64,000 nucleotides of DNA from Phycisphaerae bacterium (GCA_013360585.1 JABWBH010000019.1:1-64000); one strand, 5' to 3'; shown: positions 30,474 through 63,523, counted from the stretch's first letter. The notes: a model not told the origin generated them from the sequence alone. A program made the numbers and translations.

Positions 30474-31133
30474 TCAGGCGTGGGGGAGAAGGTCGAGCGC
30501 GTTTTCGATCGCCCGCCGGATGCGGGCATGAACGTCTTCGGCCCGCTGAAGGTGGGCCCAGCTCCACGGCGTGCGGTCCTCGTGCTGAGTCACGAACGTG
30601 ATCGTGCCCAGATGCAGCAACTTCTCATGCGGACCTGAGGACAGATACGTGTTGCGGATGTCGACCAGCGCCGTCGACGTCACGCGCGGCGCCCGCACTC
30701 CGTGAATCTCGAGCACCCGGCGGTTCGTCAGCACGTACCACGTCGCGCTCCAGCTCACCACCGCAAGCATCAGCCTCGCCAACCCCGCCCCGAAGCACAA
30801 CTGCGCGGCGCGCTCCGCCGAAAGCCCCATCGGAGACGTCCCGCTCAGCAGCAACCCCAGCGCCAGCACGGTCAAAACCGCCAGCCACCGCGCCGACTTG
30901 AACAGCGGGGAGAAGACCGAGGGTTTGATCGCCAGCAGAATCAGCTCTCCACCGTCCAGTGCCTCCAGCGGCAGCCGCAGAACCGACGGCGATGCCGACG
31001 CCGCTTCCGGCTGGGCCTCGATGGTGGCGATCCGGCAAGGCTCGACCCAAGCCGGGCGCACTGGGGCGCTCGGACCCGGGAGCATCCGATCCGTCCGCCT
31101 TTGCGTCGATCGTAATTTCATGCCGAAGCTCAT
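30474..31133 (-). CDS. bPH2-type membrane protein
   Basis: About 219 residues with two hydrophobic helices (ARWLAVLTVLALGLLLSG and LARLMLAVVSWSATWYV) followed by a PH-like domain starting YVLTNRRVLEIHGVRAPRV, the characteristic YxLTxxRxxxxxG of bacterial PH domain 2 proteins. The ATG at 31133 is chosen because it overlaps the stop of the upstream glycosyltransferase gene as ATGA. Membrane-associated; precise role unknown. Confidence 0.7.
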   Translation of the reverse strand: MSFGMKLRSTQRRTDRMLPGPSAPVRPAWVEPCRIATIEAQPEAASASPSVLRLPLEALDGGELILLAIKPSVFSPLFKSARWLAVLTVLALGLLLSGTSPMGLSAERAAQLCFGAGLARLMLAVVSWSATWYVLTNRRVLEIHGVRAPRVTSTALVDIRNTYLSSGPHEKLLHLGTITFVTQHEDRTPWSWAHLQRAEDVHARIRRAIENALDLLPHA

Positions 31134-47019: not shown

Positions 47020-48255
47020 ATGATCGAAGTACGACCGTTCCGCGCCCTGCGCTACAATTTCGACCGGTATCCGGACATCTCCGCGCTGATTGCACCGCCG
47101 TATGACGTCCTCGATCTGTCTGACAAGGAAGCACTGCTTCGCCGCTCGGATCGCAATGTCGTCGCCGTGGACCTTCCGCACGTGCCGCCGAAGTCCGCCG
47201 GTCCGCCGGAAGCCTACCGCCGCGCGGCCGAGACGCTTCGGAGCTGGCGGAGCGACGGCACGCTTGTATGCGAGCCCTCACCGGCGATGTACGCCTATCA
47301 TCAGGAATTCATGCACGAGGGACGCCGCTACACCCGCAAAATGCTGATTGTGACCCTCAGACTCTCTCCCTTCTCCGAGGGGAATGTGCTTCCGCACGAG
47401 GAGACGTTCGGCGGGCCGAAGGAGGATCGTCTCGCGCTGATGAAGGCGACGGCGTGTCAGCTTTCGCCCATCTTCGGCTTGTACTCGGATCCGGAAGGCG
47501 AGGTGGATGCGGCGCTGCGCCCGGTGACGCGGAGCCGCCCCTCCGTGGTCGGAACCCTCGACGGGGTGGACAATCGGATGTGGACGACGACCGACGCCGG
47601 CGTCCACCGCGCCGTCAGCGCCCTGCTCTCGCAAAAGAAAGTGTTCATTGCTGACGGGCATCACCGCTACGGGACGGCCTTGCTTTACCGCGACGGACTT
47701 TCGGGCGACGCGGGACGACCGGGCGGAGAGCATCCCGCGAGTTTCATCATGTTCGTCCTCGCCTCGATGGACGACCCGGGCTGCCTGATCCTCCCCTACA
47801 ACCGTGTGCTGCCGGGTCGGGCGCTGGCCGACGTCCTTTCCGCCTGGCGATCGTCGACGGCGACGTGCGGTGACGCCGAGGCCGACCTGCGCCTTTTCGA
47901 CCCGCAGACGCAGCGGACGGTCGCCCTGAAGTTCACGCAGCGGTCGCGGCTGGATGCGCTGTCCCCGGAGAAAAGCCCCGCCTGGCGAAAGCTGGACGTT
48001 GCTTATCTTCACCGGGTGCTGATCGACGAGGATCTTCGCGCTGGAGCCGCGGACCTGCCGAAGGTTGCATATGTCAAGTCCGTCGAGCAGGCGAGGGACA
48101 CCGCCCGCGCGGAGCGAGGCGTCGCGCTTCTGCTGAACGCCACGCCGATGTCGCACCTGAAAGCCGTCAGCGAGGCGGGCGATCTGATGCCGCAGAAGAG
48201 CACCTTCTTTGCCCCCAAGCTTGTCACGGGCATGACGATGTATTCCCTGGAGTAA
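47020..48255 (+). CDS. DUF1015-family protein
   Basis: A 411-residue cytoplasmic protein. The ATG at 47020 begins MIEVRPFRALRYNFDRYPDI, the standard start of DUF1015 (PF06245). Further family motifs: IAPPYDVL, LPHEETFGGPKEDRLALMKA, FIADGHHRYGTALLYRD and the C-terminal MPQKSTFFAPKL. No biochemical role is assumed. The next gene begins 3 bases after its stop. Confidence 0.88.
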   Translation: MIEVRPFRALRYNFDRYPDISALIAPPYDVLDLSDKEALLRRSDRNVVAVDLPHVPPKSAGPPEAYRRAAETLRSWRSDGTLVCEPSPAMYAYHQEFMHEGRRYTRKMLIVTLRLSPFSEGNVLPHEETFGGPKEDRLALMKATACQLSPIFGLYSDPEGEVDAALRPVTRSRPSVVGTLDGVDNRMWTTTDAGVHRAVSALLSQKKVFIADGHHRYGTALLYRDGLSGDAGRPGGEHPASFIMFVLASMDDPGCLILPYNRVLPGRALADVLSAWRSSTATCGDAEADLRLFDPQTQRTVALKFTQRSRLDALSPEKSPAWRKLDVAYLHRVLIDEDLRAGAADLPKVAYVKSVEQARDTARAERGVALLLNATPMSHLKAVSEAGDLMPQKSTFFAPKLVTGMTMYSLE

Positions 48256-48258
48256 GTC

Positions 48259-49176
48259 GTGGCGGCAACGACGTTGAGAGGCGCAGCGCTCGTTCGGCTT
48301 CAATACAGCGGGCGCAGAGTTTACGCCGCGCTCGCCGGGATTGCGGCGCTCCTCGGCGCAGGTTGCGGCGCCGCGATGCGTCACCTGCCTGAACTGGCGA
48401 CGGCGGAGACACCGCAGGTCGAGGGTTTTGACGATCACGGCTGGGCGCTGACCCTGCTGGAGAACGTGTCACAGGGTTGTGTGAACTACGATCATCTTCG
48501 CGCGCACCCCGAACCGCTGCTCGCATTCCTCGCGCAGATCGAGCGGATCGGTCCGCGCACTCATCCCGAGGCCTTCGCCACGCGAGCCTCGGTCCTGACC
48601 TACTACGTCAATGCCTACAACGCCTGCGCGCTTCGGGCGGTGCTCGATGCCGGGGTTCCGGAAAGCATGTACGAACTCGGACGCGCCTCCCCGGAGCTTC
48701 GGTTCTCCTTCGTCGTGGAGGGGCGGCGCGTCACGCTGGCGGACCTTCGCCGTGCCGCGCGCGAGGCCGCGGGGACGGACGCGCGCATTGAGTTCTGCCT
48801 GTGCGAGCCGGCGATCGGCGCGGCCCCGCTTCCGTCAACGCCGCTCCGCCCGGACGGTCTGGACGCCCAGCTGGACGCGATCGCCCGCACCGCACTCGCC
48901 CGGGACGCCGTCCTGCGGTTCGATCATGCCCGCGAGCGCATCCTCGTCGCGTTGTTTGTTCACCATCGCAGAGAGGCGTTGATCGACGGGTATCGCAGAA
49001 GGATGGGCACGTCTCACGGAACGTTGGTCAACGTGCTGAACCTGCTGACGGATGAAGCGGTCCGGGCGCGCCTCGCGTCGGCGGTCGGTTATGAAATCGT
49101 CCCGATGCCCTTCGACCGGCGGCTGAATGCGTGCGTCCCCGAGCCCGCTCCGTCGCCCGCCGTCGATCGAAATTGA
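48259..49176 (+). CDS. DUF547 lipoprotein
   Basis: A 305-residue exported protein with a lipobox-like AGC at about residue 36 after a hydrophobic leader. DUF547 motifs: CVNYDHLR, TYYVNAYNACALRAVL, RIEFCLCEPAIGAAPL. GTG start 3 bases after DUF1015, so the two are probably co-transcribed. Function unknown. Confidence 0.8.
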   Translation: MAATTLRGAALVRLQYSGRRVYAALAGIAALLGAGCGAAMRHLPELATAETPQVEGFDDHGWALTLLENVSQGCVNYDHLRAHPEPLLAFLAQIERIGPRTHPEAFATRASVLTYYVNAYNACALRAVLDAGVPESMYELGRASPELRFSFVVEGRRVTLADLRRAAREAAGTDARIEFCLCEPAIGAAPLPSTPLRPDGLDAQLDAIARTALARDAVLRFDHARERILVALFVHHRREALIDGYRRRMGTSHGTLVNVLNLLTDEAVRARLASAVGYEIVPMPFDRRLNACVPEPAPSPAVDRN

Positions 49177-49191
49177 CGAGACTGCCCGAGG

Positions 49192-50772
49192 TCAGTTCGG
49201 GGCTGCGGCGACGCGGCGCGACGGCGTCCCCGGCGTCCCGCCCGGTCCCGTGGGGCCCGCCGTGGTTTCCACCCGATCCCGTCCGTTGCGCTTCGCCGTG
49301 TACATCGCCCGGTCAGCCAGGTGCAGCAATTGCCCGGCCGTCATCCCGTCCTCCAGGGCGTCGACGTGTCCGATCCCGAGGCTCGCGGTAACGCGCAAGG
49401 CTCGGCCTGACCAGTGAATGACCAGCTTCGCCACGGTGTTGCGCAGCTCCTCCGCCAGCGCCGCCGCCTCGGCGCTCGAGGCTCGGGGAACCACCACCGC
49501 GAACTCCTCTCCCCCGTAACGCGCGACCAACCCGCGACCGTTCACCGCCGACTTCAACGCCGATGCCACGCCTTTCAGAATCGCATCTCCCGCGGCATGC
49601 CCGTATTCATCGTTGAACTGCTTGAACAGGTCGATGTCCACAAAGATGACGCTCAGACCCTCTCGCTGGGACTGGGCCCGACGGACCTCTTCTTCGAGCC
49701 GCCGATCGAGGACCGCCCGGTTCGCGATCCCCGTCAATCCGTCCGTCGACGCAATCTCGAGGATTGCTTTCTTCTCCTCCTCAAGCCGCTCCGCATGTCG
49801 CCGCGCGTCCTCGACTTCCCGCGCCGACGCCGCCCGATCCGCCTCCGCCTCCAGCGCAAAGCGCGTCATCGCCGCCGCCGCCTCCGCCTGAATCTGCGCG
49901 TACGACACCGGCGACTCAATGTCGATCTCCAGATACGACGCCATCTCGTTGACGTGAGCGTCCAGGGCGATGAGCGTCTCTTCGACAATATCTGCCCCCA
50001 ACCCGGTCAGCCGCGTCACGTCCGCTCGTGTTTCCTCGACCAGCCCCGCACCGGGATCCCGGTTGAAAAGCGCCGCGATCCGTGCCGCGCCCATCACAAT
50101 ACCCGCCAGCGCCCGCCCCTCGCCGGAAACACTCTCCACACCAGCCCCGTGATGCGCGCCGACCGCTTCGCACAGCAGCGGCGGCAGCCCCCACGCATGC
50201 AGCACCGCCTGCCCGATCTGCGCATGATCCACCCCCAGCCGCGCCCGCTCGACGGCCTCGATCGCCGTCCCCGCCGCCGCCGCCTCCAGGACGCTCCGGT
50301 ACACCTCGCCTGCCTTGCGGTGCGCCGCCAGCATTCCGATGTCCGACAGCAGACCCGCGACGAACGCCTCGTCCGCCAAGCCGTTTCCCTTTCCGCGCCC
50401 CAGTTGCCGCGCCGCCGCCGCCGTCGTCAGCGACCGCCGCCAGTACCGTCGGTAATCAAATCCCTCCGTCGACCGGAATGACATCAATCCGGTCAGCGAA
50501 AACCCCAGCGCCATCGCCTTCACCGCGCGCAATCCGACGATCACCACCGCCTGCCGGATCGACGTCACTTCGCGCGACAGCCCGAACATCGAAGAGTTCA
50601 CGACCTTCAGCAGGCGCGCCGCCAGCGCCGGATCGTTCTGAAGCGCCCCCGCGATCTGGTCCAGCGTGACGTCTTTGTTGCGGGAAAGCCGCATCACCTC
50701 CAGCGCCGCCGCCGGCAAGGACGGCAGGTCTTCGACGTTGCACACCGCTGCAAGAAACTCGTTCCGCCCCAT
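49192..50772 (-). CDS. HDOD-GGDEF protein (putative diguanylate cyclase)
   Basis: 526 residues. The N-terminal HDOD domain (about residues 15-210; PSLPAAALEVMRLS, ALQNDPALAARLLKVVNS) precedes a helical linker and a C-terminal GGDEF domain with FKQFNDEYGHAAGDAILKGV and the active RYGGEEFAV. It likely makes c-di-GMP in response to a signal through HDOD. The RxxD inhibitory site is not obvious. Confidence 0.88.
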   Translation of the reverse strand: MGRNEFLAAVCNVEDLPSLPAAALEVMRLSRNKDVTLDQIAGALQNDPALAARLLKVVNSSMFGLSREVTSIRQAVVIVGLRAVKAMALGFSLTGLMSFRSTEGFDYRRYWRRSLTTAAAARQLGRGKGNGLADEAFVAGLLSDIGMLAAHRKAGEVYRSVLEAAAAGTAIEAVERARLGVDHAQIGQAVLHAWGLPPLLCEAVGAHHGAGVESVSGEGRALAGIVMGAARIAALFNRDPGAGLVEETRADVTRLTGLGADIVEETLIALDAHVNEMASYLEIDIESPVSYAQIQAEAAAAMTRFALEAEADRAASAREVEDARRHAERLEEEKKAILEIASTDGLTGIANRAVLDRRLEEEVRRAQSQREGLSVIFVDIDLFKQFNDEYGHAAGDAILKGVASALKSAVNGRGLVARYGGEEFAVVVPRASSAEAAALAEELRNTVAKLVIHWSGRALRVTASLGIGHVDALEDGMTAGQLLHLADRAMYTAKRNGRDRVETTAGPTGPGGTPGTPSRRVAAAPN

Positions 50773-51649
50773 CCTCGTCCCCCGTCACCTACGCGAAAAC
50801 ATCGACGAACTCCGCGCCAGCGGGGGAGCCGTCGGGGCTCCCCAACTTGCGCGCATCTCGCGCCTTGAATCGCCTCCTACCGGAGCCTGCAAAAGGGGGT
50901 GCAGCCTCCAACCCGCTCGTCCCACGGGAATGTCCGCCGGCATGCCTCATCGCCAGACCCGATCTCAACCCGGAACCGGGAGGCGTCAGTCATCCGGGTC
51001 CGCCCGACAAGGACGGCCTTGCGGCGGGTTAACACTCCCGTGTATTATTCTGCATCGGCAAAACGTCGAGGACTGTGCGACGCTGACGGTCCGTGCGTCC
51101 GCTCACTTGCGGTGGGGGGGGGGCGAAAGGGGCGCAATTCTTGCCCCGGCGCGGCTTCAGTCCGAGAACGCAACGCCAGTATCCCCGGAAAAAGCAGACG
51201 CCCGCGCCGCAAGAGCGCCATCAACGTTGTTCGATCGGCAGGATATATTCTCCGCAGCATTAAACCCTTATTGAGCGGACGACGGGTTCTCCGCTCACGG
51301 ATTGCGGCGAGCCGACAAAGACGGGATCGACCTCGAGCCGCTGGCCCTCGAGCACCGCTCTGGGCCGCCCCGCACCGGAACCCTGGCCTGCCGACCTCCT
51401 GGCGGTTGGCCGAAATGCTGAGAATGCTCGGAAGTCCGCTCCCTGCCGAACCGTCGATTTCCAGCCCTGGCTGCGGCTCAGCCCGGTCATTCCGGTGAGA
51501 ATTCGTGGATCCGAGACCCTTGCCGCACCCGTTGAATCCAGACCGTCACGGACCGGGTGTCCGTCCAAGCTCTTGACACGACCGGGCCGCTGCGTAAAAG
51601 AAAGTGAACGTAGCGGGGTCGGTCCGGTGAACGCCGTTCCCCCCGTCCT
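50773..51649. other. Long intergenic region before tRNA-Gly
   Basis: 877 bases without a convincing gene. A short palindrome GGGGAGCC-GTCG-GGGCTCCCC lies at about 50824-50843. The two longest frames (50666-51274 and 50899-51498) are Arg/Pro-rich and lack conserved residues. No RNA gene besides the tRNA was recognised. Confidence 0.4.
51573..51600 (+). promoter_or_regulatory. Putative tRNA-Gly promoter
   Basis: TTGACA (51573-51578), 16 bases, TAAAAG (51595-51600), about 50 bases before the tRNA start. The -35 element is perfect and the -10 is partial. Confidence 0.55.
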
Positions 51650-51721
51650 GCGGGTGTAGCTCAGTGGTAGAGCGTCACGTTGCCAACGTGAATGTCGTCG
51701 GTTCGAGCCCGATCACCCGCT
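51650..51721 (+). tRNA. tRNA-Gly (GCC anticodon)
   Basis: 72 bases fold into a cloverleaf: acceptor GCGGGTG with CACCCGC, D arm with AGCTCAGTGGTAGAGC, anticodon arm CACGTTGCCAACGTG with anticodon GCC, and T arm with GGTTCGAGCCC. CCA is not encoded. A tyrosine integrase gene and mobile-element genes follow, so its 3' half is the likely attachment site. Confidence 0.95.
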
Positions 51722-52079
51722 TCCTTCCCCCGCCGGGGTCCTGACGTGACAGCGGTTGCCAACCTACGACACGGGCGACCTTTACGGCCCCTTGCCGCGC
51801 GCGGCGTTCAACCCTCCAAATCAGGCCCGTTTTGCCAGCGGTTGACCCGAAGTGCCTGGCGCGGACACCTGTGAGTGCAAGGTTTAGTGCAAGGTAAACT
51901 CGAGCATGTGCATTCAAGTGTGTGCGCGCGCGCGCCCCCCCCACACCCCCCGGAGGTGCGTCAACGCACTCCGGGGCTGGGGAAAGTGTGCGCGCGCGAA
52001 GAGGCAGGAACAATCAGCAGGTTCGGAAGACTCCAGGGAGTGAAGTGGATCTAGACCGTCTAGGCGCCGAAAGCCACGC
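51722..52079. promoter_or_regulatory. Left edge of the mobile element, possible arm-type sites
   Basis: A 358-base gap between the tRNA and the 3' end of the integrase gene. It holds two direct copies of AGTGCAAGGT (51874-51883 and 51886-51895), 12 bases apart, which may be integrase arm sites, and a GTGTGCGCGCGCGCG alternating tract near 51919-51936 that could adopt Z-DNA. Confidence 0.35.
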
Positions 52080-53573
52080 CTACGCGAACGCCTTCTCGCG
52101 GCCGGTGGATGGGGAAGTGCCCGTCTCGGAGAGCGTCGGCAGCGCCGCCAGCGCCCCGGCGATGTCGAGGAGCTTCGGGTCGGTGTAAATGTTGGCGGTG
52201 AGCTCCGGCTTGGAATGTCGCATCGCGGCCTGAGCGGTACGGAGCGGTACGCCCGCGGCGCACAGATGCGTTCCGAAGGTGACACGCAGGGCGTGGACGT
52301 CCACGACGCGGTTACGCTCGTCGCGCTTGGCAATGCCCGCGACGGCCAGGTCGCGATCGAAGATCCGCGTCAGGCCCGTCGGGACGCCGAGCACGGGGGT
52401 GTCGGTGGGGAGCCGTACTGGGATCGGCTCGCCCCACGCCCGACACTCGCTCTGCAGGCGTGCCAGGCGCTCGTCCATCCACGCCTTCAGCTCGGCGGCG
52501 AGGTCCGCCCGCAAGGGGATGCTCGACCCTTGGCGGTTCTTCTCGTCCTCGGGATTGAGCACCGCGTAGGCCACGGGTCCGTCGAGTTCGAGCTGGGCGA
52601 CGGTCAGCGACGCCAATTCGCCCTTACGCAGGCCGGTGAGCGCCAGCGCCTTGTACACAAGGGCGCGTTTGCGGCCTTCGCTCTCCAGTTCGGCGATCAG
52701 CAAAGGGTTCTCTTCGAGGGCTTCACGTGCCCGGTCAACCGCGCCGTCGATCTGCTCGTACGACAGCGCTGCCCGCGTCCAGGTCGACCGGCTCTTCTTC
52801 GATGCGGCTTTGCCCCCGGATACGGTCTCGCGCCCGTATTCCGCCAGCGGGCGCAATCGGGCGACCCGCAGCAAGCGCACCAGCTCCTCCTGGGTCAGCG
52901 CGCGCCGTTGGTGCCGCCGGTCACGCTTCGCGTCGGCCCGCGGGAGATCCGCGAAGGGACTCTGCGTGAGCCGGCCGGTCCGCCGGCACCAGTTGCCGAA
53001 ACCGACCAGCGCCTCGCGGTAACTGTTCCGCGTCGCCGCGCTCAGGCCGTCGTCCTTCCGGGCGAGCAGCCACTGCTCGACCGGCCCGGCGGCCATGCGA
53101 TTGAGCCTCTTGAACCCGCATTCGTCCATGAGCCGGTCCAGCCGAACCCGCAGCATGGAGATTCGACGTGCATCGCCGCCCTTGGCTTCGAGGTGACGCA
53201 CGTAGGCCTCGAGATGGCGCTTCACGGGCACACTGGCGTGGTCGGCAACTTCGTCTTCCGCTTCGGTCATCACTCCGGCGCGGACGAGCTCTGCACGGCG
53301 TTCCAGTTGCGTCAGCACGGTTCGGGCGGCCATTTCGTCCCTGCAGCCGGTCGCGACTTCGATCACTTCACCGCCGCCATCGCGGTATCGGGCGATGTAG
53401 AACCGCGATTCGCCCCGGACGCGAAGCGGATCGCCTTCGCCGTCGATGACCTCGGCGGTACGCACCTGGCCGTTGCGCAGCCGCCAACGGGCAATGCGTT
53501 GACCGTCCCTTTCGACGATCTCCGCTCCCGGCGGCGCCGGCATGGTGTAGGCTTTTCGGTAGACTCTTCCCAT
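52080..53573 (-). CDS. Tyrosine recombinase/integrase
   Basis: 497 residues. The C-terminal catalytic domain has Arg in LTGLRKGELAS, the HxxR box HALRVTFGTHL, and the nucleophile Tyr in TANIYTDPKLLD. A core-binding domain precedes it (about residues 110-210). Located next to tRNA-Gly with its 3' end facing the tRNA, as in tRNA-targeting integrative elements. Confidence 0.9.
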   Translation of the reverse strand: MGRVYRKAYTMPAPPGAEIVERDGQRIARWRLRNGQVRTAEVIDGEGDPLRVRGESRFYIARYRDGGGEVIEVATGCRDEMAARTVLTQLERRAELVRAGVMTEAEDEVADHASVPVKRHLEAYVRHLEAKGGDARRISMLRVRLDRLMDECGFKRLNRMAAGPVEQWLLARKDDGLSAATRNSYREALVGFGNWCRRTGRLTQSPFADLPRADAKRDRRHQRRALTQEELVRLLRVARLRPLAEYGRETVSGGKAASKKSRSTWTRAALSYEQIDGAVDRAREALEENPLLIAELESEGRKRALVYKALALTGLRKGELASLTVAQLELDGPVAYAVLNPEDEKNRQGSSIPLRADLAAELKAWMDERLARLQSECRAWGEPIPVRLPTDTPVLGVPTGLTRIFDRDLAVAGIAKRDERNRVVDVHALRVTFGTHLCAAGVPLRTAQAAMRHSKPELTANIYTDPKLLDIAGALAALPTLSETGTSPSTGREKAFA

Positions 53574-53974
53574 CGTTCATGTCCTCCCGCCCGGACCCAC
53601 CCCGGGCGAGCCCAGTGAGGCTCAAGGGGGCGAGGAACTCAAGGCGAAATTGCAAGCGGTTTTCCTTCCATGCCCCCACACGCCGGACCCGCTTCAGTTG
53701 ATTCACCCTCGATTGAATGCCTTCGCGGAAAATTTCGACAGGATGGGGGGCGGTCCACCTGCGCAACCTGCGCGAACCTGCGCGATGGTTGGGATTGCCG
53801 TACGTGTGCGCGGGTGCGTGCGCAGGCGTGCGCGCGCGCGTGGGTCCCGGTGATCGCGCAGGTTCGCGCAGGCGCGCTCGTAAGTCCTTTGCCCACAATG
53901 CCTGAGCGCCTGCGCGATGTCGGGATGGATCGCGCAGGTTGTGCGCAGGTCTGCGCAGGTGGCTGGATACACCA
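53574..53974. repeat. Cluster of TGCGCGA-type repeats, putative origin
   Basis: Between integrase and helicase genes, about nine copies of a CCTGCGCGA-like unit occur in both orientations: CCTGCGCAACCTGCGCGAAC near 53760, TCGCGCAGGTTCGCGCAGG near 53854, CGCCTGCGCGATG near 53907, and TCGCGCAGGTTGTGCGCAGG near 53930. Intergenic clustering beside replication genes fits iterons of an element origin. No gene is seen here. Confidence 0.5.
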
Positions 53975-55552
53975 TCATGCCGACACGTCCTTCAAAGCGA
54001 TCCCCTGGTAGAATCTTTGATTGCCCGTGCCGAGACGGGTGACAATGCCAGTGACCGCCGCCGCGAGGTCGCGGCCGAAGGTTTGCTTCGTCGAAACCGA
54101 AACCCGACCGTCGGCGTCACACCATCGTTTCCAGGCGTGATATAAGTCATCGACCCACACTCGAAGCGCCTGCCCCGTTTCGCAACACTCCCGCACGAAA
54201 GCGCCGACAGGGCTGGAGAGATCCTCCATATCGCGTAGCGCGTCTTCAACGCTGGATGGCTGGAGGAAGTGACCACGTTTTTGAAGATGCCGCCAGCCCT
54301 CAATGGACCAGTTCAGGATCCCGGGTCGCTCGTTAAGCAATCGACGCGTGAGGGTTCTGTCTTCGCGACCATAAAAGCTCTCATTCAGCCGTAGGATCAT
54401 GAACCTGCCCGCCAAAGCTCCAGAAGCATCCGTCAGGCGGGGCAGCTCGTTGGTCAGGAAGACAAAGCGCGTGGGAAGCTTCATGGTCAGGCTGGGTAAG
54501 AACTTGCGGTCGACCGTGAGAGAGTCCTCCCCGGAGATGCACAGCAAGCGTTCGATGACAATCTGGATGTTGTCTCCGGCGAATCGCGCGTCGCTCACGA
54601 TGCCCAGCGATTTGCCGATCAACGGCTGAAGACCGAACGGGCCGGCGAGACTGGAAGTCGTGGGACCACAGATATTCCCCCGACCCACGAGGCCACTCAG
54701 CACGCGCGCAATTGTGCCCTTTCCACTGCGTTTCGGCCCGACGATGAGCAACATCTTATGCTGCGAAGTGTCCCCGGTAAGACAGTAGCCGAACCATTCT
54801 TTGAGAAGATCCAGCGCCTGAGCGTCATCCCTGAACAGTTGTCGTAAGAACGAGTTCCACTGTTTCGGATCAGGTGCCCGCGGATCGTGGTCATAATCCA
54901 ATGCGTTAACGTTAAAGAACGCCGGCGTCGGCTGGAGCTTTTTCATCGTCGGCAAATGCAGCAACGATGAACGCGTCGCGATGATTTCCGAGGGCTCGGG
55001 ACAGTTCGGCCCCGCCGTCAGCCACGACGGTGAAGGGGTGGTCGCCTCCAGGTGGACGTGGGCTTGGATCGATGCCTGTGCCGACTGCAGTGTGTTCGGA
55101 TTGGCGGGGAAATCTTTCGCCGTCCACGCTTGCTCCTCGGGGTCCCAGATCATGAGGACCGCGTTGTGGAGCCACGGGAGTAACCTGTTCCTGAGGCTGC
55201 CGTCCTCGCGTTCAACGTAGCGGTTGCCAGCCCATTCCCAAAACTGACCCGCGTAATGTCGCAGCGTCATGCCTTCGGAATGGTGATGGAACGCCTCGAC
55301 GTAGGCTTCGGCCGTGGGCAGCGTTCGCTCAACCGCGAGAATAAGCCTTCCCGTCTCGGGATCGATCGTCCCGGGCTCCGGTGCGCTCGAGAGTGGTTTC
55401 TTACATGCGCGGCCGCTTGAAGACGACTTCTTCTTGCGTCGCGCTTTGGAACTCGCCGACCCCCTTTTCGTGTTTGGTTCACGACTCGCGAGAGAAGCGG
55501 CATCATCGATGAGCTGATGAGCAATGTCGCCAGCCCGAACATGTCGTTTCAT
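53975..55552 (-). CDS. SF3 (D5-type) replicative helicase
   Basis: About 525 residues from ATG 55552, which overlaps the upstream primase stop as ATGA. The D5_N-type region (about 60-260) precedes the SF3 ATPase with Walker A LIVGPKRSGKGTIARV, an acidic B segment LGIVSDARF and motif C-like TRFVFLTNELPRL, as in P4/phage-plasmid helicase-primases. Would unwind element DNA with the adjacent primase. Confidence 0.85.
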   Translation of the reverse strand: MKRHVRAGDIAHQLIDDAASLASREPNTKRGSASSKARRKKKSSSSGRACKKPLSSAPEPGTIDPETGRLILAVERTLPTAEAYVEAFHHHSEGMTLRHYAGQFWEWAGNRYVEREDGSLRNRLLPWLHNAVLMIWDPEEQAWTAKDFPANPNTLQSAQASIQAHVHLEATTPSPSWLTAGPNCPEPSEIIATRSSLLHLPTMKKLQPTPAFFNVNALDYDHDPRAPDPKQWNSFLRQLFRDDAQALDLLKEWFGYCLTGDTSQHKMLLIVGPKRSGKGTIARVLSGLVGRGNICGPTTSSLAGPFGLQPLIGKSLGIVSDARFAGDNIQIVIERLLCISGEDSLTVDRKFLPSLTMKLPTRFVFLTNELPRLTDASGALAGRFMILRLNESFYGREDRTLTRRLLNERPGILNWSIEGWRHLQKRGHFLQPSSVEDALRDMEDLSSPVGAFVRECCETGQALRVWVDDLYHAWKRWCDADGRVSVSTKQTFGRDLAAAVTGIVTRLGTGNQRFYQGIALKDVSA

Positions 55553-56646
55553 GCCAATCTCACATTTCGAGAAACGGACTTCAACGCGGACGCAAAGGCA
55601 CTCCGCGCCTCGCGCTTCGGTAAACCACACGCCGCCGCCCCAGCGACGATCAGGCGCTCCGCCTCACGCTCATCGACCCCGCACCCCAGCAGGTTGGCAG
55701 CGGCCGCAAAGGCGGATTGATTGCGCGCGCCCTCGGGCACGCGGCCTTCGATGAACTCGCGCGTCGCAGGATGGATCCGCTCGATGGGTAGTGCGGGAGT
55801 TGGGAAGCGAGGGGGCTGTCGGCGGGGATGTGCGGAATCTCCTGTCCGGCGCGCCAACGCGGCTCGCGCCTCTGCGGTGAAGACCTCCCAGGCTTGAGGA
55901 TCGCAAGCAGGTAGGCCCTCGAGTTGGGTGGGTTTGTCCTCAAACGGATCGACGATGACGCCGCCGCCGTGCGCAGCGAAGGCGCCGGCGCACGGGAGAG
56001 TCATCGACCAGCCATGCGGTGGTCGGGAGGTGGATCGAGGCACGAGTTCGACCGAACCCGCGTCGCCGAGCCGCGCGATTGCTCCGTTCGCGCAGAGAAA
56101 GGCATGGGGAACCGCGCACTGCGCCGCGTCCAGAACCGCGATATTGAATGCCGCCGCAGCGAGACCGGCAGCGCCAATGACCGCGGTTTCAAGATCTACC
56201 GGCCCGGGTGGGAAGAAGAAGACATGCCGTCCGAGAGCACGACGCGAGCGGGCGACCAGGAGACCTGAGGAAAGGCCGGCAGCATCGGCGCGCTCTGCAA
56301 TGCAACGGGCTGCATGCGCCGGATCGGCCAGCCCCGTCGCGCCGTGATCAGCGGCGTCCAGATCGATCGCCAGCCATCGGACTAGGCCATCGGTTCCCGG
56401 GCAGTAGGCGGCCAGCACCACCTGATCCACGCGTTCCAGCCGCGGCGGGTATCCCTCCGCGATGAAGGTGAGCGTCGCCGGACGGCCGCACAGATGCGCA
56501 TCGACGAGCGCCATCACCGCGTGCGGATCAGGCGGTAGCACGATTCGGCAGGGTTTTTCGCTGCGGCGAATCGCAGTAGCGAAATGCGATCCGTTCAGGA
56601 GGACCAGCAGCAATTCCATGAGAGACGGATTCGGGAGGGGCGTCAT
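55549..56646 (-). CDS. AEP/PrimPol-like primase
   Basis: About 365 residues. The start at 56646 overlaps the upstream HTH gene as ATGA. The archaeo-eukaryotic primase signature is suggested by WLAIDLDAADHG (DxD metal pair) and the later SGLLVARSRRALGRHVFFF, a G-x-H-type block; a helical C-terminal module (NQSAFAAAANLLGCGVDERE) resembles PriCT. Functions with the SF3 helicase. Assignment is by motif only. Confidence 0.65.
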   Translation of the reverse strand: MTPLPNPSLMELLLVLLNGSHFATAIRRSEKPCRIVLPPDPHAVMALVDAHLCGRPATLTFIAEGYPPRLERVDQVVLAAYCPGTDGLVRWLAIDLDAADHGATGLADPAHAARCIAERADAAGLSSGLLVARSRRALGRHVFFFPPGPVDLETAVIGAAGLAAAAFNIAVLDAAQCAVPHAFLCANGAIARLGDAGSVELVPRSTSRPPHGWSMTLPCAGAFAAHGGGVIVDPFEDKPTQLEGLPACDPQAWEVFTAEARAALARRTGDSAHPRRQPPRFPTPALPIERIHPATREFIEGRVPEGARNQSAFAAAANLLGCGVDEREAERLIVAGAAACGLPKREARSAFASALKSVSRNVRLA

Positions 56647-56879
56647 CGGGTCCCCCGGCACGATTCGCGGACCTGCGGGCACCCCGCGGCAATCCACTCG
56701 AGTAAAGATGACCGTTTCCAGCGGACCAAGGTGCCGAGCCGTACGGGAGGGGGCATCCGACCTGCGTCGGAGAGGCGCCGGATGTGGCGCTCACTGCAAT
56801 CGCCGAGCAACGCAGCTACAGCGCGAACGTCTAGAAGTTCGGGCGCAACAAGCGGCTGAGTGTTGGAGGATAAGTTCAT
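56643..56879 (-). CDS. AlpA/excisionase-like HTH protein
   Basis: 78 residues with the MerR/AlpA-type HTH (LLDVRAVAALLGDCSERHIR then RLSDAGRMPPPVRLGTLVRW). AAGGAG lies upstream of the ATG. It may control excision or activate the replication genes it overlaps. Confidence 0.7.
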   Translation of the reverse strand: MNLSSNTQPLVAPELLDVRAVAALLGDCSERHIRRLSDAGRMPPPVRLGTLVRWKRSSLLEWIAAGCPQVRESCRGTR

Positions 56880-56982
56880 CCCTGCAGTGCTCCTTTCGAG
56901 TTCTCGACGATGGTTCGCACCTCGCGCGCGTCACATCGGGCGTGCTGTCCGATTCCAGTTGCGGAAATCTCACCCCGGTCAG

Positions 56983-57183
56983 TCATTTGCGCACCTCGAC
57001 TTCCGGAGCGGGTGTGCTCTGCTCGCGCAGCCAGATCGAGATGACTTCAGGGTCAAACCGGATTTCGCCGTCGGGAAGCCGCACGCACGGGATTAGCCCG
57101 CGGCGCGCTAAGCGCGCGGACCGGCCACGGGGGAATCGAAGGCGGCTGTCGAGTTCAGTCGGTTTCAGCAGCTGGTCGCTCAC
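56983..57183 (-). CDS. Second small HTH protein
   Basis: 66 residues from GTG 57183 (TAAGG seven bases upstream; the frame opens at TTG 57189). Short HTH-like domain: LLKPTELDSRLRFPRGRSAR and LARRGLIPCVRLPDGEIRFD, then VISIWLREQ. Similar role to the neighbouring AlpA-like protein. Confidence 0.55.
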   Translation of the reverse strand: MSDQLLKPTELDSRLRFPRGRSARLARRGLIPCVRLPDGEIRFDPEVISIWLREQSTPAPEVEVRK

Positions 57184-57278
57184 AACCAAACCTTACCACG
57201 CGAAAACGTGCGCCGACGCGGCTTGTGGCGGAGTGGGTATGAGTGGGGAGCAGATAGTATGAGATAGTTCGAGAGGGA

Positions 57279-58361
57279 TTACTTCTCCGGGAGCTTCGGA
57301 AACTGAGCGCGACAGAAGATGAACGTCTGTCGGTTGAGAGTCCTGAATCGAACGTGACCCGAGTTCATCAGGCTCGTGAGTTTCTTCACGGTCATATCGC
57401 CGCCAATGGCGTCCGCAGCTTGTTTCTTGCTCAGGGGGGCCGACGGCGTGACCGGTTCGCTGGCGTTGCCTACGCCTCCCGCTTTCGCCGTCGGCTCGTT
57501 ATCTGCTGGTTTTCCCGCGTGATCGGTGAGGATGTCAATCGCCGCTGACGAAGCGCTGAACAGGTCGTCCAGGTCGCTCGTGAAGGAACGGGGAAGCTGT
57601 TCAAGCCAGCGGTCGGGGAACTTCAGTTGTGGCCCAAGCACCGCGCTCGACTTCAACCTCCGCAGCTCCCCCAAGTTGTAGGGAAAGTCCTGTCCGTTGT
57701 GAATGCAATTTCGATTCGCTCTCAGGTTGGGCCAGCGCTGCGCCCATGCCAGATCGAAGAGCAGGTACACCCATCGTAGTGCGGGCTCGCCCGTGCGAAG
57801 AGTCTCGGTCGGGACCGGTGCAAAGTCTGCAAACGAATTATCCGGGACGACAGCACCCGCCCTTGCGGCAAACGCCTTAAACACGTCCACGCCCTTCCGA
57901 TCGCCAAAGACACACACCGTGCGCCCGATGGGTGGGACTACGGCGAAGGGATCCCCAGCGCTATTCGCAATGGGTTTACCGTGAATATCGAGAAAGGGTT
58001 TGGTTCCAAGGGGTGCGAGTGTCGGAATCGCTGGAATGCCCACTTCGCGGTAAACGCCGCACATGGTCCAGGCGGGAGTGCGGAGGAAGGTCGGAGCCGT
58101 GCCGTTGATAGCGATACACTCGCCTGCCTCGGGTTCATCGTGACCGAGCCAACAGCGCAAGCGCCCGTGATGGACCAGGGCGTCTTCGAACCGGTCGCGC
58201 AGGGAACGCAGCAGCTCGATGGGTTTCTCGCTAGCCGCCGATTCGGCTGAGGGGGTTCCCGTCCCTTGTTGTGCCTCGCCAGCCTTCTCATACTGGCCAT
58301 GGCGCGCATGCAGCTTGCTGCGCTCTGCGAGTCGTGAAGACCGACGTGAATCGTCCGCCAT
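57279..58361 (-). CDS. Unrecognised protein abutting the CRISPR array
   Basis: 360 residues; I do not recognise the family. The N-terminus is Ser/Ala/Arg-rich; a central domain contains VCVFGDRKGVDVFKAFAARA; the C-terminus has an HTH-like LSKKQAADAIGGDMTVKKLT. The ATG is 19 bases from the distal CRISPR repeat, with AAGGATG as ribosome site, so its promoter must be inside or beyond the array. It could be an element gene transcribed as array read-through. Confidence 0.55.
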   Translation of the reverse strand: MADDSRRSSRLAERSKLHARHGQYEKAGEAQQGTGTPSAESAASEKPIELLRSLRDRFEDALVHHGRLRCWLGHDEPEAGECIAINGTAPTFLRTPAWTMCGVYREVGIPAIPTLAPLGTKPFLDIHGKPIANSAGDPFAVVPPIGRTVCVFGDRKGVDVFKAFAARAGAVVPDNSFADFAPVPTETLRTGEPALRWVYLLFDLAWAQRWPNLRANRNCIHNGQDFPYNLGELRRLKSSAVLGPQLKFPDRWLEQLPRSFTSDLDDLFSASSAAIDILTDHAGKPADNEPTAKAGGVGNASEPVTPSAPLSKKQAADAIGGDMTVKKLTSLMNSGHVRFRTLNRQTFIFCRAQFPKLPEK

Positions 58362-58380: not shown

Positions 58381-60663
58381 GGTTCACCCCCACGTGCGTG
58401 GGGACATCATCGCTCTCATCTCCGCCCACGTCATCGTCGTCGGTTCACCCCCACGTGCGTGGGGACATCGCAATCAGGCTCCGCCTCAAGGACGGTAGAC
58501 CGGTTCACCCCCACGTGCGTGGGGACATCAGCATGGTTTCGGCTGAAACGGCAAACCTCGTCGGTTCACCCCCACGTGCGTGGGGACATCGACGTTTGTT
58601 CCCTCCGGACGGCCGGGCCGATCGGTTCACCCCCACGTGCGTGGGGACATCGGCGTCTGGCGGAGTGTCCGCGAGCGCCGCGTCGGTTCACCCCCACGTG
58701 CGTGGGGACATCGTACCGCAGAATCCTTGGCGGGGACGCCAACTGGGTTCACCCCCACGTGCGTGGGGACATCCGCTCGTGCTCTGGGAGCGGCTTGCCC
58801 GTGACCGGTTCACCCCCACGTGCGTGGGGACATCGTTGTTAGCTGCCGCGACACAGCCCGACCAGTCGGTTCACCCCCACGTGCGTGGGGACATCGCCGG
58901 CGATCTGGCCGAGTTCGACGACTCCAGCGGTTCACCCCCACGTGCGTGGGGACATCGATAGAGGACGACGGGCCTGAAGGCGAGCCGATCGGTTCACCCC
59001 CACGTGCGTGGGGACATCGTGATCGGCATCGCCATCATCTCGTCCCACGTCGGTTCACCCCCACGTGCGTGGGGACATCGAATCTCCGAGATGGAACCGA
59101 CCCGGTAGTGCGGTTCACCCCCACGTGCGTGGGGACATCTTCACGGTTTCTAACTACCGAGAAACTAAAAGCGGTTCACCCCCACGTGCGTGGGGACATC
59201 CCCGCAAGGGGGGGTTTGGGGGGGTTCTCTATCGGTTCACCCCCACGTGCGTGGGGACATCGCGACGAGCGTATACATCCGCTGCCGGCTGATCGGTTCA
59301 CCCCCACGTGCGTGGGGACATCTACACCAGCACAGCCAGCTGTTGCGGCTCGATCGGTTCACCCCCACGTGCGTGGGGACATCTTGCACTGGTCGCCATA
59401 ATACACCTGCCTTAACGGTTCACCCCCACGTGCGTGGGGACATCATCCGGCGAGGTCTGACGAGGAACGCGCGCACCGGTTCACCCCCACGTGCGTGGGG
59501 ACATCGTCGAGCAGATGTCGGGGGGCGAGTACGCGACCGGTTCACCCCCACGTGCGTGGGGACATCGTGACTCGCCGGGAATCGCCGGGCGCTCACACCG
59601 GTTCACCCCCACGTGCGTGGGGACATCTCATCGTCGTATCCTCCTGTGTATAGAGTCCCCGGTTCACCCCCACGTGCGTGGGGACATCTCTCCACCGGCA
59701 CGACCGGATTCCCCGTCTACCGGTTCACCCCCACGTGCGTGGGGACATCGCCCGAAAGAGATACCGGATACCTTTCGCTGACGGTTCACCCCCACGTGCG
59801 TGGGGACATCGCCGACGCCGACCGTAATGAAGCACCGCTCCGCGGTTCACCCCCACGTGCGTGGGGACATCCATTATACATATCGGTTGCGTCGATGCAA
59901 CCCCGGTTCACCCCCACGTGCGTGGGGACATCGCCGATCCCGCCCGGTGCGTTGCCGGGCGGGACGGTTCACCCCCACGTGCGTGGGGACATCTCACGAA
60001 TCCGACGATCGTGGACAACGTGTTTCGGTTCACCCCCACGTGCGTGGGGACATCTCACGGAGAACTCGGTGACGGTGACGGTCGTGCGGTTCACCCCCAC
60101 GTGCGTGGGGACATCCGAGGGGGACTACTTCGGGCGGGCCGACGAGGAGGTTCACCCCCACGTGCGTGGGGACATCATCTACGGCGGCATGATGGACCCC
60201 TCGGAAAGCGGTTCACCCCCACGTGCGTGGGGACATCGAAACGTTTCCGCGAACGACTTGTCTGTGTTCGGTTCACCCCCACGTGCGTGGGGACATCTGT
60301 GGTGAGGTATTCCGGTTTCATTGTTGTCCCGGTTCACCCCCACGTGCGTGGGGACATCGTCGAGAACGTGAGGCGAGCGGACGGCGTGAACGGTTCACCC
60401 CCACGTGCGTGGGGACATCCATCCGGAACGTTCACGCTCCAGACGGGTTTTCGGTTCACCCCCACGTGCGTGGGGACATCACGTCGTCGGGGATGGTCGC
60501 GGCGGCCCACAGCGGTTCACCCCCACGTGCGTGGGGACATCGGAGGGGTTGGCTTAACGATCGGAGGGGTTGGCGGTTCACCCCCACGTGCGTGGGGACA
60601 TCGAATATGCCGCCTTCACATACTTACGGACCAGCGGTTCACCCCCACGTGCGTGGGGACATC
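58381..60663 (-). CRISPR. Type I-E CRISPR array, 38 repeats, 37 spacers
   Basis: A 28-base unit starts GGTTCACCCC and ends TGGGGACATC on the plus strand. Read on the minus strand it begins GATGTCCCCAC, forms a stem, and ends GTGAACCG, the type I-E form with an 8-base 5' handle, so pre-crRNA is transcribed leftward. All 38 copies look identical; position 29 is usually C (G on the minus strand). Spacers are 32-34 bases; unit starts are 61 apart except three at 60 and one at 62. The leader-proximal end is at 60663, 8 bases from the cas2 stop. Confidence 0.98.
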
Positions 60664-60671
60664 ACTGAGCC

Positions 60672-60953
60672 TTAGCTCACAGATGGCGATCTTATCAGAA
60701 CCAAGCCCTCGAAATCAACCGGAGTTCGATCGGTTTTCCCATGTGTTCGGATGGCGAATCCCTGCTCAGTCGGGTTCTTGAAGATCATGGTGGCCCCTCC
60801 GCCGCGAAGCAGGCTGGTCGTCTTGTCCCAGACCTTGTCCCGAACGAGTGCGGAAAGGCGGCCTACGAATACGCCCGTCCGCGGCTCGATCATCCAGCGG
60901 CTCAGCAGCCCCCGCAGCGAAGCCGGGACGCGCTCAACAATCAGAACCACCAT
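60672..60953 (-). CDS. cas2: CRISPR adaptation protein Cas2 (type I-E)
   Basis: 93 residues with the Cas2e form: MVVLIVERVPASLRGLLSRW, then RTGVFVGRLSALVRDKVW. Forms the Cas1-Cas2 integrase core for spacer acquisition. It overlaps the cas1 3' end by 20 bases. Its stop is 8 bases before the first repeat, so the leader must overlap its coding sequence. Confidence 0.93.
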   Translation of the reverse strand: MVVLIVERVPASLRGLLSRWMIEPRTGVFVGRLSALVRDKVWDKTTSLLRGGGATMIFKNPTEQGFAIRTHGKTDRTPVDFEGLVLIRSPSVS

Positions 60954-61893
60954 AGTTCATGCCTCCTTCCGCCGTCTGGTCTGAACCGCCGCTCTCCGGA
61001 TCCCACAGCCGGGTCGGTCGCGCCGGCTCCTCGTCCCAGTCCTCAATCGCCGCGGTCGTGGGAACCTCGACGCCCGGCACGTCGAGCACGGCGGCGATCT
61101 CGGGAATGATGTGTTCCAGAAGATCGGTATCCCGAAACCGATCCCGACACGCCAACCGCACCGATCTCTCCAGATCGCTCAGGTAGGAACCGGCTATCTC
61201 GAAGGCCAGCGGGATTACGACATCGACCTTGTACAAGTCGGCGATGTCGTAAACGAAGGAAAGCTGCTTGCCGGTGTGGATGAACCCCAGCGCCGGCGAA
61301 TACCCGGCGGAGAGAATCGCAGCGTGAACCACCCCGTAAAGGCACGCATTGGCTGTGGAAAGCGCTCGATTGACCGGACTGGCCGACGCCCATTCGCCGC
61401 GCTTATACAACCGTCCCGTCCATTCGACGTTGTACTTGAGGCTGGCCGCGGCGTAGGTCTCGCGGACGCGGATGCCCTCGCGCCCGCGGAGCTGCTTGAG
61501 CGAAAGCCCCTCGGGCAACGTCTCGTCAAATCGGCGCTCGTACATGCGTCGGACCACGGCGAGCCGGGCGATGGGCGACGCCCACAGTGCGGCCTGCTTC
61601 AGGAGGTTGGCCGAGCTGCGCGTGCCGCCGGTGCTATGGGCGTACATCCGCACGCCCTCCTGGCCGACCCATGCGACAAGGCAGTTGTTGTCGGCCAGCG
61701 TCCGCGCGGCGGCGTGCGTTATCGTGGTGCCGGGACCGAGCATGAGAACGGCGAGTGCCGCGACGGGGACGTGGGTTGACCCTTCCTTGTCGTGAACGGC
61801 GATGGCCTGCTCGTGCTGGTCGATGCGCGCGTGCTCGACGTAGAGGAAGCTGAGACGGTCGTCGAAGCGCGCGAGTTGATGCAGATCGTCCAT
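60934..61893 (-). CDS. cas1: CRISPR adaptation integrase Cas1 (type I-E)
   Basis: 319 residues from ATG 61893 (GTGGGAG upstream). Catalytic set matches Cas1e: Glu139 in LRGREGIRVR, His206 in GFIHTGKQLSF, and Asp216/Asp219 in VYDIADLYK. Inserts new spacers with Cas2. An upstream frame to 62193 has no Cas1 similarity and overlaps cas6e. About 103 bases separate it from cas6e. Confidence 0.95.
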   Translation of the reverse strand: MDDLHQLARFDDRLSFLYVEHARIDQHEQAIAVHDKEGSTHVPVAALAVLMLGPGTTITHAAARTLADNNCLVAWVGQEGVRMYAHSTGGTRSSANLLKQAALWASPIARLAVVRRMYERRFDETLPEGLSLKQLRGREGIRVRETYAAASLKYNVEWTGRLYKRGEWASASPVNRALSTANACLYGVVHAAILSAGYSPALGFIHTGKQLSFVYDIADLYKVDVVIPLAFEIAGSYLSDLERSVRLACRDRFRDTDLLEHIIPEIAAVLDVPGVEVPTTAAIEDWDEEPARPTRLWDPESGGSDQTAEGGMNYGGSDC

Positions 61894-61996: not shown

Positions 61997-62824
61997 TTAG
62001 CGGACCGGGGCGACGGAGAGCAAGCCGAAGCCGAAGGCCTTGGCGGGGCCGATGCCGCGAATGATAATTTCGCGGAAGCGGTCGGCATCGACCACTTCGA
62101 GGATGCCGTCATAGCGCACCGCGCGAAGCTGCTGACCCTTTCCCGTTTCATGCGTCTTGTTGACGTAGACATAGCCGGGTTCGAGAGACTCAATCGAAGT
62201 CAGCTTGAACCCGCCCAATGGGGCGCGTCGACCCAGCCAAGCGTTCCACTGGTCGGGTGGCACTGGAACGCGCTTGCCGAATGACTCACGGTCCACGGGT
62301 TGACCGTTCGCATCCAATGAGGCTTCTCGGAGGCGCTTGGTCGGATTGGAGAGCAAGCGGAAGCGCAAGCGCTGACCACGCTCGAATCGCCGCTCGTCGG
62401 CCTTCGTTTCCGGAAGGGCAGCCAAAAGGTGGCGCGCGTTGTGAAATGCGTAGTCCCAATCAGGCTCCAAGGCCGACTGAACCAGAATGACAACGCGGCC
62501 ATTTGGCGTCACGTCAACACGGTGCAGGAAGTTGTGCGCCTTGTCGCGTGGGACGTGTATCGGTCGGTCAGCGGCTTCCGGCGCAATACCACGGGAAGGC
62601 GATACCTGCTCGGCAACAACCGCGCAGCGCTCAGGGCGCGGATCGAGGAAGCCGCACGGTTCATAGGGCATTAAGAACTCCGGGTCTTGCTCACGCTGGG
62701 ACGGAGTCGGGAAAGCCATGCAGAGGCGCTGATGGACGTGATAGCGATTGCGCAGCCAAAGGCGCCCAGGGCGCGGCCTGTCGGGGTTATCGCCGACGTT
62801 GATGAGTAGACAGGAAAGGTACAC
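61997..62824 (-). CDS. cas6e: CRISPR RNA-processing endonuclease Cas6e
   Basis: 275 residues (CasE/Cse3 family). The N-terminal catalytic pair Y28-x2-H31 in RNRYHVHQRLCMAFP corresponds to the Tyr/His of characterised Cas6e; the C-terminal G-rich GIGPAKAFGFGLLSV is the usual ending. Cuts each repeat at the base of its stem. Begins 3 bases after the stop of the HNH gene. Confidence 0.92.
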   Translation of the reverse strand: MYLSCLLINVGDNPDRPRPGRLWLRNRYHVHQRLCMAFPTPSQREQDPEFLMPYEPCGFLDPRPERCAVVAEQVSPSRGIAPEAADRPIHVPRDKAHNFLHRVDVTPNGRVVILVQSALEPDWDYAFHNARHLLAALPETKADERRFERGQRLRFRLLSNPTKRLREASLDANGQPVDRESFGKRVPVPPDQWNAWLGRRAPLGGFKLTSIESLEPGYVYVNKTHETGKGQQLRAVRYDGILEVVDADRFREIIIRGIGPAKAFGFGLLSVAPVR

Positions 62825-62827
62825 GGC

Positions 62828-63415
62828 TTAGACCTCCTCGGGGCTTAAGCGTCGCCTTCGAGTTTCCAGCGACCGAAAACGGATGATCTCGTCACGCTTG
62901 GTGATGATCCGGTCGCGCCAGTGCGGATCATCGGGATTGATGCGGTCCAACCCCATACCCAGGCCGTACTCGATCATGGTGACGGCGTCGTGGCACAAAC
63001 GACAGAGCGAGCGCAACTCTTCGAGACGTTCCTCTCCCCCGGCGTGGCGATAGGTGACATGCTGAACGGTCGTACCCGGCGATTTGCAGAAGACGCACAG
63101 GTCATGGTCGTGGTCGAGCCGTTGAAGTCGGCGCTTCTTGTATTCGCTGTTGCCATAGTCGGCTCGTGGGCGAGGTGGTCGAGGAGTCGCGCGTTGCGCA
63201 GGTTCTTTCGCAATGCCGACTTCGCCGTTTGCGCCTACGCGCAGTTCCTGGCGGATGACGAATCGGGCGCTATGTGCCGGCGGCTCGAACGTCAGTGGAA
63301 CATCGTACCAGACGAGCGCATCGTCGGGGGCTTCGGGCTGCACTGGCGTAGGGATCCAGTCGAGCAGGCAATCCAAGGTTTCTGGAGCCGGGTCCCCGAA
63401 CGTAACCCTCTTCAT
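62828..63415 (-). CDS. HNH nuclease with Cas5e-like N-terminal remnant
   Basis: 195 residues from ATG 63415 (GAGAGAGG upstream, spacing short). The first 60 residues (DDALVWYDVPLTFEPPAHSA, then RFVIRQELRV) resemble the last strands of type I-E Cas5. A Pro/Arg linker leads to an HNH domain: C107-x2-C110, His119 in VQHVTY, C138-x2-C141 and H142, with LRSLCRLCHDAV. It sits where cas5 sits in type I-E operons. HNH-fused Cas5 has been described in Cas3-less I-E systems. The N-terminal Cas5 body is missing. The frame is open upstream into RHS sequence. Confidence 0.6.
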   Translation of the reverse strand: MKRVTFGDPAPETLDCLLDWIPTPVQPEAPDDALVWYDVPLTFEPPAHSARFVIRQELRVGANGEVGIAKEPAQRATPRPPRPRADYGNSEYKKRRLQRLDHDHDLCVFCKSPGTTVQHVTYRHAGGEERLEELRSLCRLCHDAVTMIEYGLGMGLDRINPDDPHWRDRIITKRDEIIRFRSLETRRRRLSPEEV

Positions 63416-63523
63416 AACCTCTCTCTTTCGACGGCGGCGTGTGGTTTTGGCGGAAACTGTTAACTGGAAATCACCGAAGAGAGTCGAAGCCGCGAAAAAC
63501 ACCTGCGAGGCGATCGGATGACG

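What the first reader, a model, noticed from the sequence alone, without database searches (positions are those of the whole stretch)
51650..58361. tRNA-Gly integrated element with its own PrimPol-helicase module beside a CRISPR locus
A tyrosine integrase, AlpA-like HTHs, an AEP-like primase and an SF3 helicase linked by ATGA overlaps form a compact replication-integration unit, like satellite or P4-type elements. The CRISPR locus directly follows in the same orientation and may be cargo used against rival elements.
Basis: partly seen in the sequence, partly recalled or inferred. Interest (0 to 1): 0.6.

Follow-up and report, generated by a model that had tools for sequence, protein, structure and literature searches.

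The report
tRNA-integrated satellite-like island carrying CRISPR
A mobile DNA element sits in a glycine tRNA gene of an uncultured planctomycete, with its own copying and packaging genes but no virus shell genes found, and it carries a CRISPR immune locus that has lost its cutting machinery; relatives of the element carry other anti-virus systems in the same place.

Summary
51650-58361 contains a complete tRNA-Gly(GCC), a tyrosine integrase, an iteron array, a P4/D5-type SF3 helicase, an AEP PrimPol (fold confirmed), an AlpA-like HTH and ATGA overlaps. This is only the left end of a larger element. Its right att site (45-bp exact tRNA copy) lies on another contig (C61). A congeneric genome shows the empty site, so the CRISPR lies inside the element unless assembly or a later rearrangement misleads. 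A congener has a complete 34.9-kb relative in tRNA-Gly, with a type I R-M system where the window has CRISPR. Both share a right end of ParB-methylase, HNH, TerS and TerL; no portal or capsid gene was found in either. Smaller relatives (7.1-9.2 kb) sit in tRNA-Val, -Cys and -Leu. Best reading: a Phycisphaerae family of satellite-like integrative elements with a defence-cargo position, not P4-like by the published gene set. The cargo here is a Cas3-less (Cas5-HNH) type I-E locus: most of cas5 was replaced by an RHS gene, cas7 and cas8e were not found in the genome, cse2 is absent from the contig, and the leader is missing. "Used against rivals" is unsupported: the locus probably cannot interfere or adapt, and the spacers tested hit nothing.

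The parts
51650..51721 (+). tRNA-Gly(GCC), integration target, kept intact
   Evidence: ARAGORN
51676..51720 (+). att core (left), 45 bp identical to C61:20456-20500(-)
   Evidence: exact copy and ~78% similar arm
51874..51894 (+). two integrase arm-type sites AGTGCAAGG, +171 and +183 from the core pattern
   Evidence: only copies in the 64-kb window; matching sites at the right end (-92) and in the related G002 element (+183, -92)
52080..53573 (-). tyrosine recombinase (integrase), 497 aa
   Evidence: PF00589 1.9e-15; phrog_1 6e-31; 65-76% identical integrases in 4 related elements
53758..53959 (.). iteron array, 10 copies of (T/C)GCGCAGG in both orientations; candidate replication origin
   Evidence: 10 copies against 0.14 on average (largest 3) in 2000 Markov dinucleotide randomisations; DNA fold z -6.85
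53975..55552 (-). SF3 (P4/D5-type) helicase, starts at ATGA overlap with primase
   Evidence: TIGR01613 1.4e-48, Pox_D5 1.6e-7; overlap
55549..56646 (-). archaeo-eukaryotic primase (PrimPol)
   Evidence: AF2 model vs CAPP Prim-Pol Z 16.8; conserved in 6 other elements
56643..56879 (-). AlpA-like excisionase/regulator HTH
   Evidence: PF12728 7.6e-8, phrog_66 1.1e-7
56983..57189 (-). second small HTH_17-like protein (weak)
   Evidence: PF12728 0.0056
57279..58361 (-). ORF360, unknown function, conserved element core protein (homology to G002 begins about 58256)
   Evidence: 54-61% to the G002 protein at the same position; structure model uninformative, pLDDT 36
58381..60663 (-). type I-E CRISPR array, 38 identical 28-nt repeats, 37 spacers (cargo)
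60672..60953 (-). cas2e
   Evidence: TIGR01873 1.7e-24; stop codon 8 bp from the first repeat, no leader
60934..61893 (-). cas1e
   Evidence: TIGR03638 6.5e-112
61997..62824 (-). cas6e
   Evidence: TIGR01907 1.5e-21
62828..63480 (-). 3' remnant of cas5-HNH (HNH domain and linker) fused in frame to an RHS/YD-repeat ORF that continues past 64000 (to C38:64723)
   Evidence: matches solved Cas5-HNH residues 199-385 of 388; intact homologues of 368-400 aa elsewhere

Best explanation
This is the left end of an integrated, satellite-like mobile element of Phycisphaerae. The integrase recombines the tRNA-Gly 3' end with the element's att copy, leaving the tRNA intact; AlpA probably controls excision. 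The PrimPol and SF3 helicase, acting at the iteron array between helicase and integrase, replicate the excised circle. The right end supplies HNH, TerS, TerL and a ParB-methylase. With no portal, capsid or tail gene found, the element most likely has its DNA packaged into a helper phage's heads. The stretch next to ORF360 is an exchangeable cargo position used for defence systems. Here the cargo is a Cas3-less (Cas5-HNH) type I-E CRISPR locus that later decayed: a fusion with an RHS gene removed most of cas5 and, it seems, everything upstream (cas7, cse2, cas8e), and the leader is gone. Shown: both att sites, the empty site in a congener, the complete related element, the PrimPol fold, defence cargo at the same position, the cas5 truncation. 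Inferred: excision, replication, helper packaging, and the order of the decay events.
For: Empty site: in G001 (same genus) the two host flanks share an exact 127-bp overlap holding one complete tRNA-Gly; the left flank is 94% identical to window 48000-51753 and the right flank 86-92% to C61. Right att on C61 with a 45-bp core. Arm site AGTGCAAGG at +183 and -92 in both G000 and G002, otherwise absent from the window and (apart from one host-side copy at +183) from the C61 stretch. Complete G002 element: 34,874 bp, 51-bp att, same integrase, AlpA, primase and ORF360, then hsdR/hsdS/hsdM with PDC-M30A/B proteins. Shared right end ParB-MTase/HARE-HTH/HNH/TerS/TerL in G000 and G002. Three smaller elements with PrimPol and tRNA att repeats: 9,194, 8,525 and 7,101 bp. 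IMG/VR contig L081 with AlpA, PrimPol, helicase and integrase plus two TerS. Truncated cas5 and no detected cas7/cas8e.
Against: The middle of the element is missing from the assembly: C38 ends at 71559 inside an RHS gene and C61 ends beyond TerL, so continuity from CRISPR to right att is inferred. No helper phage, excised circle or packaging was observed. Three related elements (7-9 kb) showed no terminase gene in their gene lists. The TerL family also occurs in a phage-like locus with a portal gene (G010), so the terminase could be a prophage remnant. Iteron sequence is not shared with the G002 relative.
Confidence: 0.68

Rival explanations
1. A decayed temperate prophage: the terminase end is what remains after loss of head and tail genes, and CRISPR, R-M and RHS genes filled the gap.
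For: HNH, TerS and TerL are full-length and closest to phage families; the related G010 TerL lies beside a true portal protein, PF04860 1.1e-100.
Against: The same portal-less ParB-MTase/HNH/TerS/TerL end is seen in G000, G002, G032 and G056 and, in part, in G006, G022 and G023. Remnants would not be expected to keep 85-88% identical intact terminase genes in two species that both lack the rest. PrimPol elements without structural genes exist in at least three other tRNAs.
Confidence: 0.17
2. The CRISPR/RHS block is not part of the element: a chromosomal rearrangement or a chimeric contig joined it next to ORF360.
For: The join is unusual: the array begins 19 bp from the ORF360 start, the leader is missing, and cas5 is fused to RHS. 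The element's middle is unassembled.
Against: C38 is one contig; GC is fairly even across the join (0.60-0.67); the G002 element also has defence genes directly after the ORF360 homologue and an RHS gene before TerL; no att lies between the integrase and the CRISPR.
Confidence: 0.12
3. An integrative element spread by conjugation or natural transfer, with no phage involvement.
For: Small relatives carry only integration, replication and cargo genes in their gene lists.
Against: Two terminase subunits and an HNH nuclease typical of packaging modules are kept in the large members, two TerS genes in L081, and no relaxase was recognised among the genes seen (not searched specifically).
Confidence: 0.12

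Closest known systems
PICMI (phage-inducible chromosomal minimalist islands, Vibrionaceae; PMC10803314)
   Same: integrase, AlpA and primase core; no capsid-remodelling genes; defence hotspot beside the primase that includes type I R-M
   Different: PICMI integrate at fis, are small and known from Vibrionaceae; this family uses tRNA genes, an AEP PrimPol with separate helicase, and in its large members HNH-TerS-TerL
P4-like satellites (PMC8628076, PMC9122126)
   Same: integrase, AlpA-like HTH, P4-type SF3 helicase, a defence hotspot
   Different: no psu, sid, delta or epsilon found; primase is a separate AEP gene; up to 35 kb; carries type I R-M and CRISPR-Cas, which Rousset et al. report as lacking in P4/P2 hotspots
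Tycheposons and VEIMEs (marine islands, cited in PMC10803314 and PMC11389934)
   Same: tyrosine recombinase, own replication module, variable cargo, some with packaging genes (details beyond the citations are from memory)
   Different: other hosts; no sequence comparison was made
Cas5-HNH (Cas3-less) type I-E CRISPR (PMC10910872; solved structure 8yb6)
   Same: cas5-HNH C-terminus, cas6e, cas1, cas2, array; intact planctomycete loci show cas7-cas5HNH-cas6e-cas1-cas2 order, named by eye, and no cas3 was noticed
   Different: window copy lacks residues 1-198 of cas5-HNH, cas7, cse2, cas8e and the leader
CRISPR-associated Prim-Pol (CAPP), 7nqe
   Same: AEP Prim-Pol fold, Z 16.8
   Different: 12% identity; here the gene is an element replication gene, and its closeness to a CRISPR is not shared by relatives

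Membership tests
P4-like satellites | integrase (PF00589) | tested here: met
   1.9e-15
P4-like satellites | alpha-type helicase (PF03288) | tested here: met
   1.6e-7, 52 of 86 profile positions
P4-like satellites | AlpA (PF05930) | tested here: inconclusive
   matches HTH_17 and phrog_66 instead
P4-like satellites | psu, sid, delta, epsilon (at most two of the seven components may be missing, PMC8628076) | tested here: not met
   none in Pfam scans of the window proteins nor PHROG scans of the proteins scanned from the complete G002 element; R-M cargo proteins were scanned with PADLOC only
phage satellite (general) | integration/replication genes present, structural virion genes absent | tested here: met
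   in the complete G002 element no portal, capsid or tail hit; the G000 middle is unseen
phage satellite (general) | mobilised by a helper phage | not testable with these tools
   needs induction or virome data
tailed prophage | portal, capsid and tail genes | tested here: not met
   not found in G002; a portal is detected beside TerL in the control locus G010
type I-E CRISPR-Cas, Cas5-HNH variant | complete Cascade (cas8e, cse2, cas7, cas5-HNH, cas6e) | tested here: not met
   cas7 not found by Pfam model or homologue, cas8e not found by homologue, cas5 truncated; cse2 not searched in the genome
type I-E CRISPR-Cas, Cas5-HNH variant | leader between cas2 and array | tested here: not met
   8 bp, against about 67-99 bp in five intact loci
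tRNA-integrating element | tRNA 3' end duplicated at the far end, with empty site | tested here: met
   45-bp att on C61; empty site in G001

The most novel reading that the evidence does not exclude
An apparently undescribed family of planctomycete phage satellites that bring their own HNH-TerS-TerL packaging motor but no capsid, replicate with a PrimPol and a swappable helicase, and carry full-size defence systems (type I R-M, Cas5-HNH CRISPR) of a kind reported as absent from the P4 and P2 hotspots.
Probability: 0.35. Interest if true: 0.72.

Novelty: new variant of a known kind. Interest (0 to 1): 0.5.

Why it matters
Phage satellites and their defence hotspots are known mainly from other phyla such as Proteobacteria and Firmicutes (own knowledge). 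A PrimPol-based family in Phycisphaerae, with terminase but no capsid genes found and with type I R-M or CRISPR cargo, would extend both the host range and the cargo size of satellite-like elements. It would also give a concrete route by which Cas5-HNH CRISPR loci could move between planctomycetes.

Tried and rejected
P4-family membership (gene set not met). CRISPR outside the element (no att between; empty site found). Primase linked to CRISPR function as CAPP is: rejected, because relatives without CRISPR beside it keep the gene. Spacer targets: no match with up to 6 mismatches in 22 fetched sequence stretches, no convincing phage hit, none of 3 spacers found in IMG/VR; a 19-nt partial match of spacer 26 to a related integrase did not extend. 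ORF360 fold: model too poor. PrimPol: no relatives in the phage and plasmid collections, one distant IMG/VR contig; integrase: none in IMG/VR.

Full report
Where it lies. The window is contig C38 (71,559 bases) of an 84-contig, 97% complete genome. A same-genus relative (G002) is a Phycisphaerales MAG, recognised by its 223,538-base contig, so the host is a planctomycete.

The observation. All named genes are present at the stated coordinates. The integrase, the P4-type SF3 helicase and the AlpA-like HTH have family matches. The primase has none, but its AlphaFold model (from seven homologues) matches the CAPP Prim-Pol domain at Z 16.8 over 202 residues, with other AEP primases below it. The two ATGA overlaps are real. 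Between helicase and integrase lie ten copies of (T/C)GCGCAGG in both orientations within about 200 bp, against 0.14 on average in randomised sequence: a candidate origin. G126 has a different repeat (TGCCAAAA, 6 copies) in the same interval, and G006 three copies of it.

The att sites. The tRNA 3' half occurs only twice in the genome: in the tRNA and on contig C61. The C61 copy is 45 bp exact, followed by a 78% similar arm. The arm-type site AGTGCAAGG lies +183 from the core pattern at the left end and -92 at the right end, in both this element and the G002 element. In G001, host DNA matching the window's left flank (94%) and DNA matching the C61 flank (86-92%) end and start with the same 127 bp, which hold one complete tRNA-Gly. 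Everything to the right of the tRNA on C38 and up to the att on C61 is therefore inserted relative to G001, about 29.9 kb or more. The limits are that G001's two flanks are separate contigs with an overlap, and that the middle of the G000 element is not assembled.

Relatives. G002 holds a complete element of 34,874 bp with a 51-bp att in tRNA-Gly: integrase, AlpA, a different helicase type (phrog_2373), the PrimPol, the ORF360 homologue, then type I R-M genes with PDC-M30 proteins, an RHS gene of 2541 aa, TerL, TerS, HNH, a HARE-like protein and a ParB-methylase. Elements of 9,194, 8,525 and 7,101 bp occupy tRNA-Val, -Cys and -Leu; the 8,525-bp one carries a DUF3800/PDC-M04A gene at the cargo position. 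G022 carries R-M-like genes there. The right-end packaging module recurs without a portal in the other genomes examined, while G010, with a related TerL, has a portal beside it.

The CRISPR cargo. Five other planctomycete loci have full cas5-HNH genes of 368-400 aa. They show cas7-cas5HNH-cas6e-cas1-cas2-array order, with cas8e and cse2 where the contig reaches them (named by eye), no cas3 noticed, and about 67-99 bp between cas2 and the array. In the window only residues 199-385 of Cas5-HNH remain, fused in frame to an RHS ORF. No cas7 was found by family model or homologue, and no cas8e by homologue; those homologue searches had no positive control within the genome. Only 8 bp separate cas2 from the first repeat. 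A single deletion between the RHS gene and cas5 would explain the fusion; this is inference. All repeats are identical, which suggests the loss is recent; this too is inference.

How it most likely works, and its standing. See the best explanation: integration and excision at tRNA-Gly, own initiation and helicase, packaging through the element's own terminase into a helper's heads, and an exchangeable defence position. The first two rest on anatomy, the third is inferred, the fourth rests on comparison. Rousset et al. (PMC9122126) note that P4 and P2 hotspots lack CRISPR-Cas and type I R-M; PICMI hotspots do include type I R-M (PMC10803314). The present family is therefore best called a new variant of a known kind: satellite-like elements with defence cargo. 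No paper on phage satellites in planctomycetes was found in the library with the terms used.

Noticed in passing
G001 L034 (C193) and C61 (L004:9782): The empty tRNA-Gly site in G001 carries a degenerate element-like left arm (AGTGCAAGG at +180), and G000's right flank has one at +183: probably the fossil end of an earlier element at the same tRNA.
   Followed up: partly
L032:14749-16941 (G002): The ParB-methylase carries an extra segment with a weak Hint match (2e-4), absent from the G000 copy; likely an intein.
   Followed up: partly
L098:10005-12701 (G056): TerL ORF of 898 aa matches the G000 TerL in two pieces (425 and 98 aa); possibly also an intein.
   Followed up: no
L004:17565-17700 (C61): A second, frameshifted copy of the TerL 3' end follows the intact gene.
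   Followed up: no
L003:7438-10188 (C38:65438-68188): An IS630-like and an IS66-like transposase (named by eye) lie between two RHS/dockerin-like ORFs inside the element.
   Followed up: no
window 30883-30972: ARAGORN calls a doubtful tRNA with an unassigned anticodon.
   Followed up: no
window 53975-55552 and L031:4201-5934: The helicase gene differs in type between elements (P4/D5-like here, another DNA helicase family in G002) while the PrimPol is kept: module exchange.
   Followed up: partly
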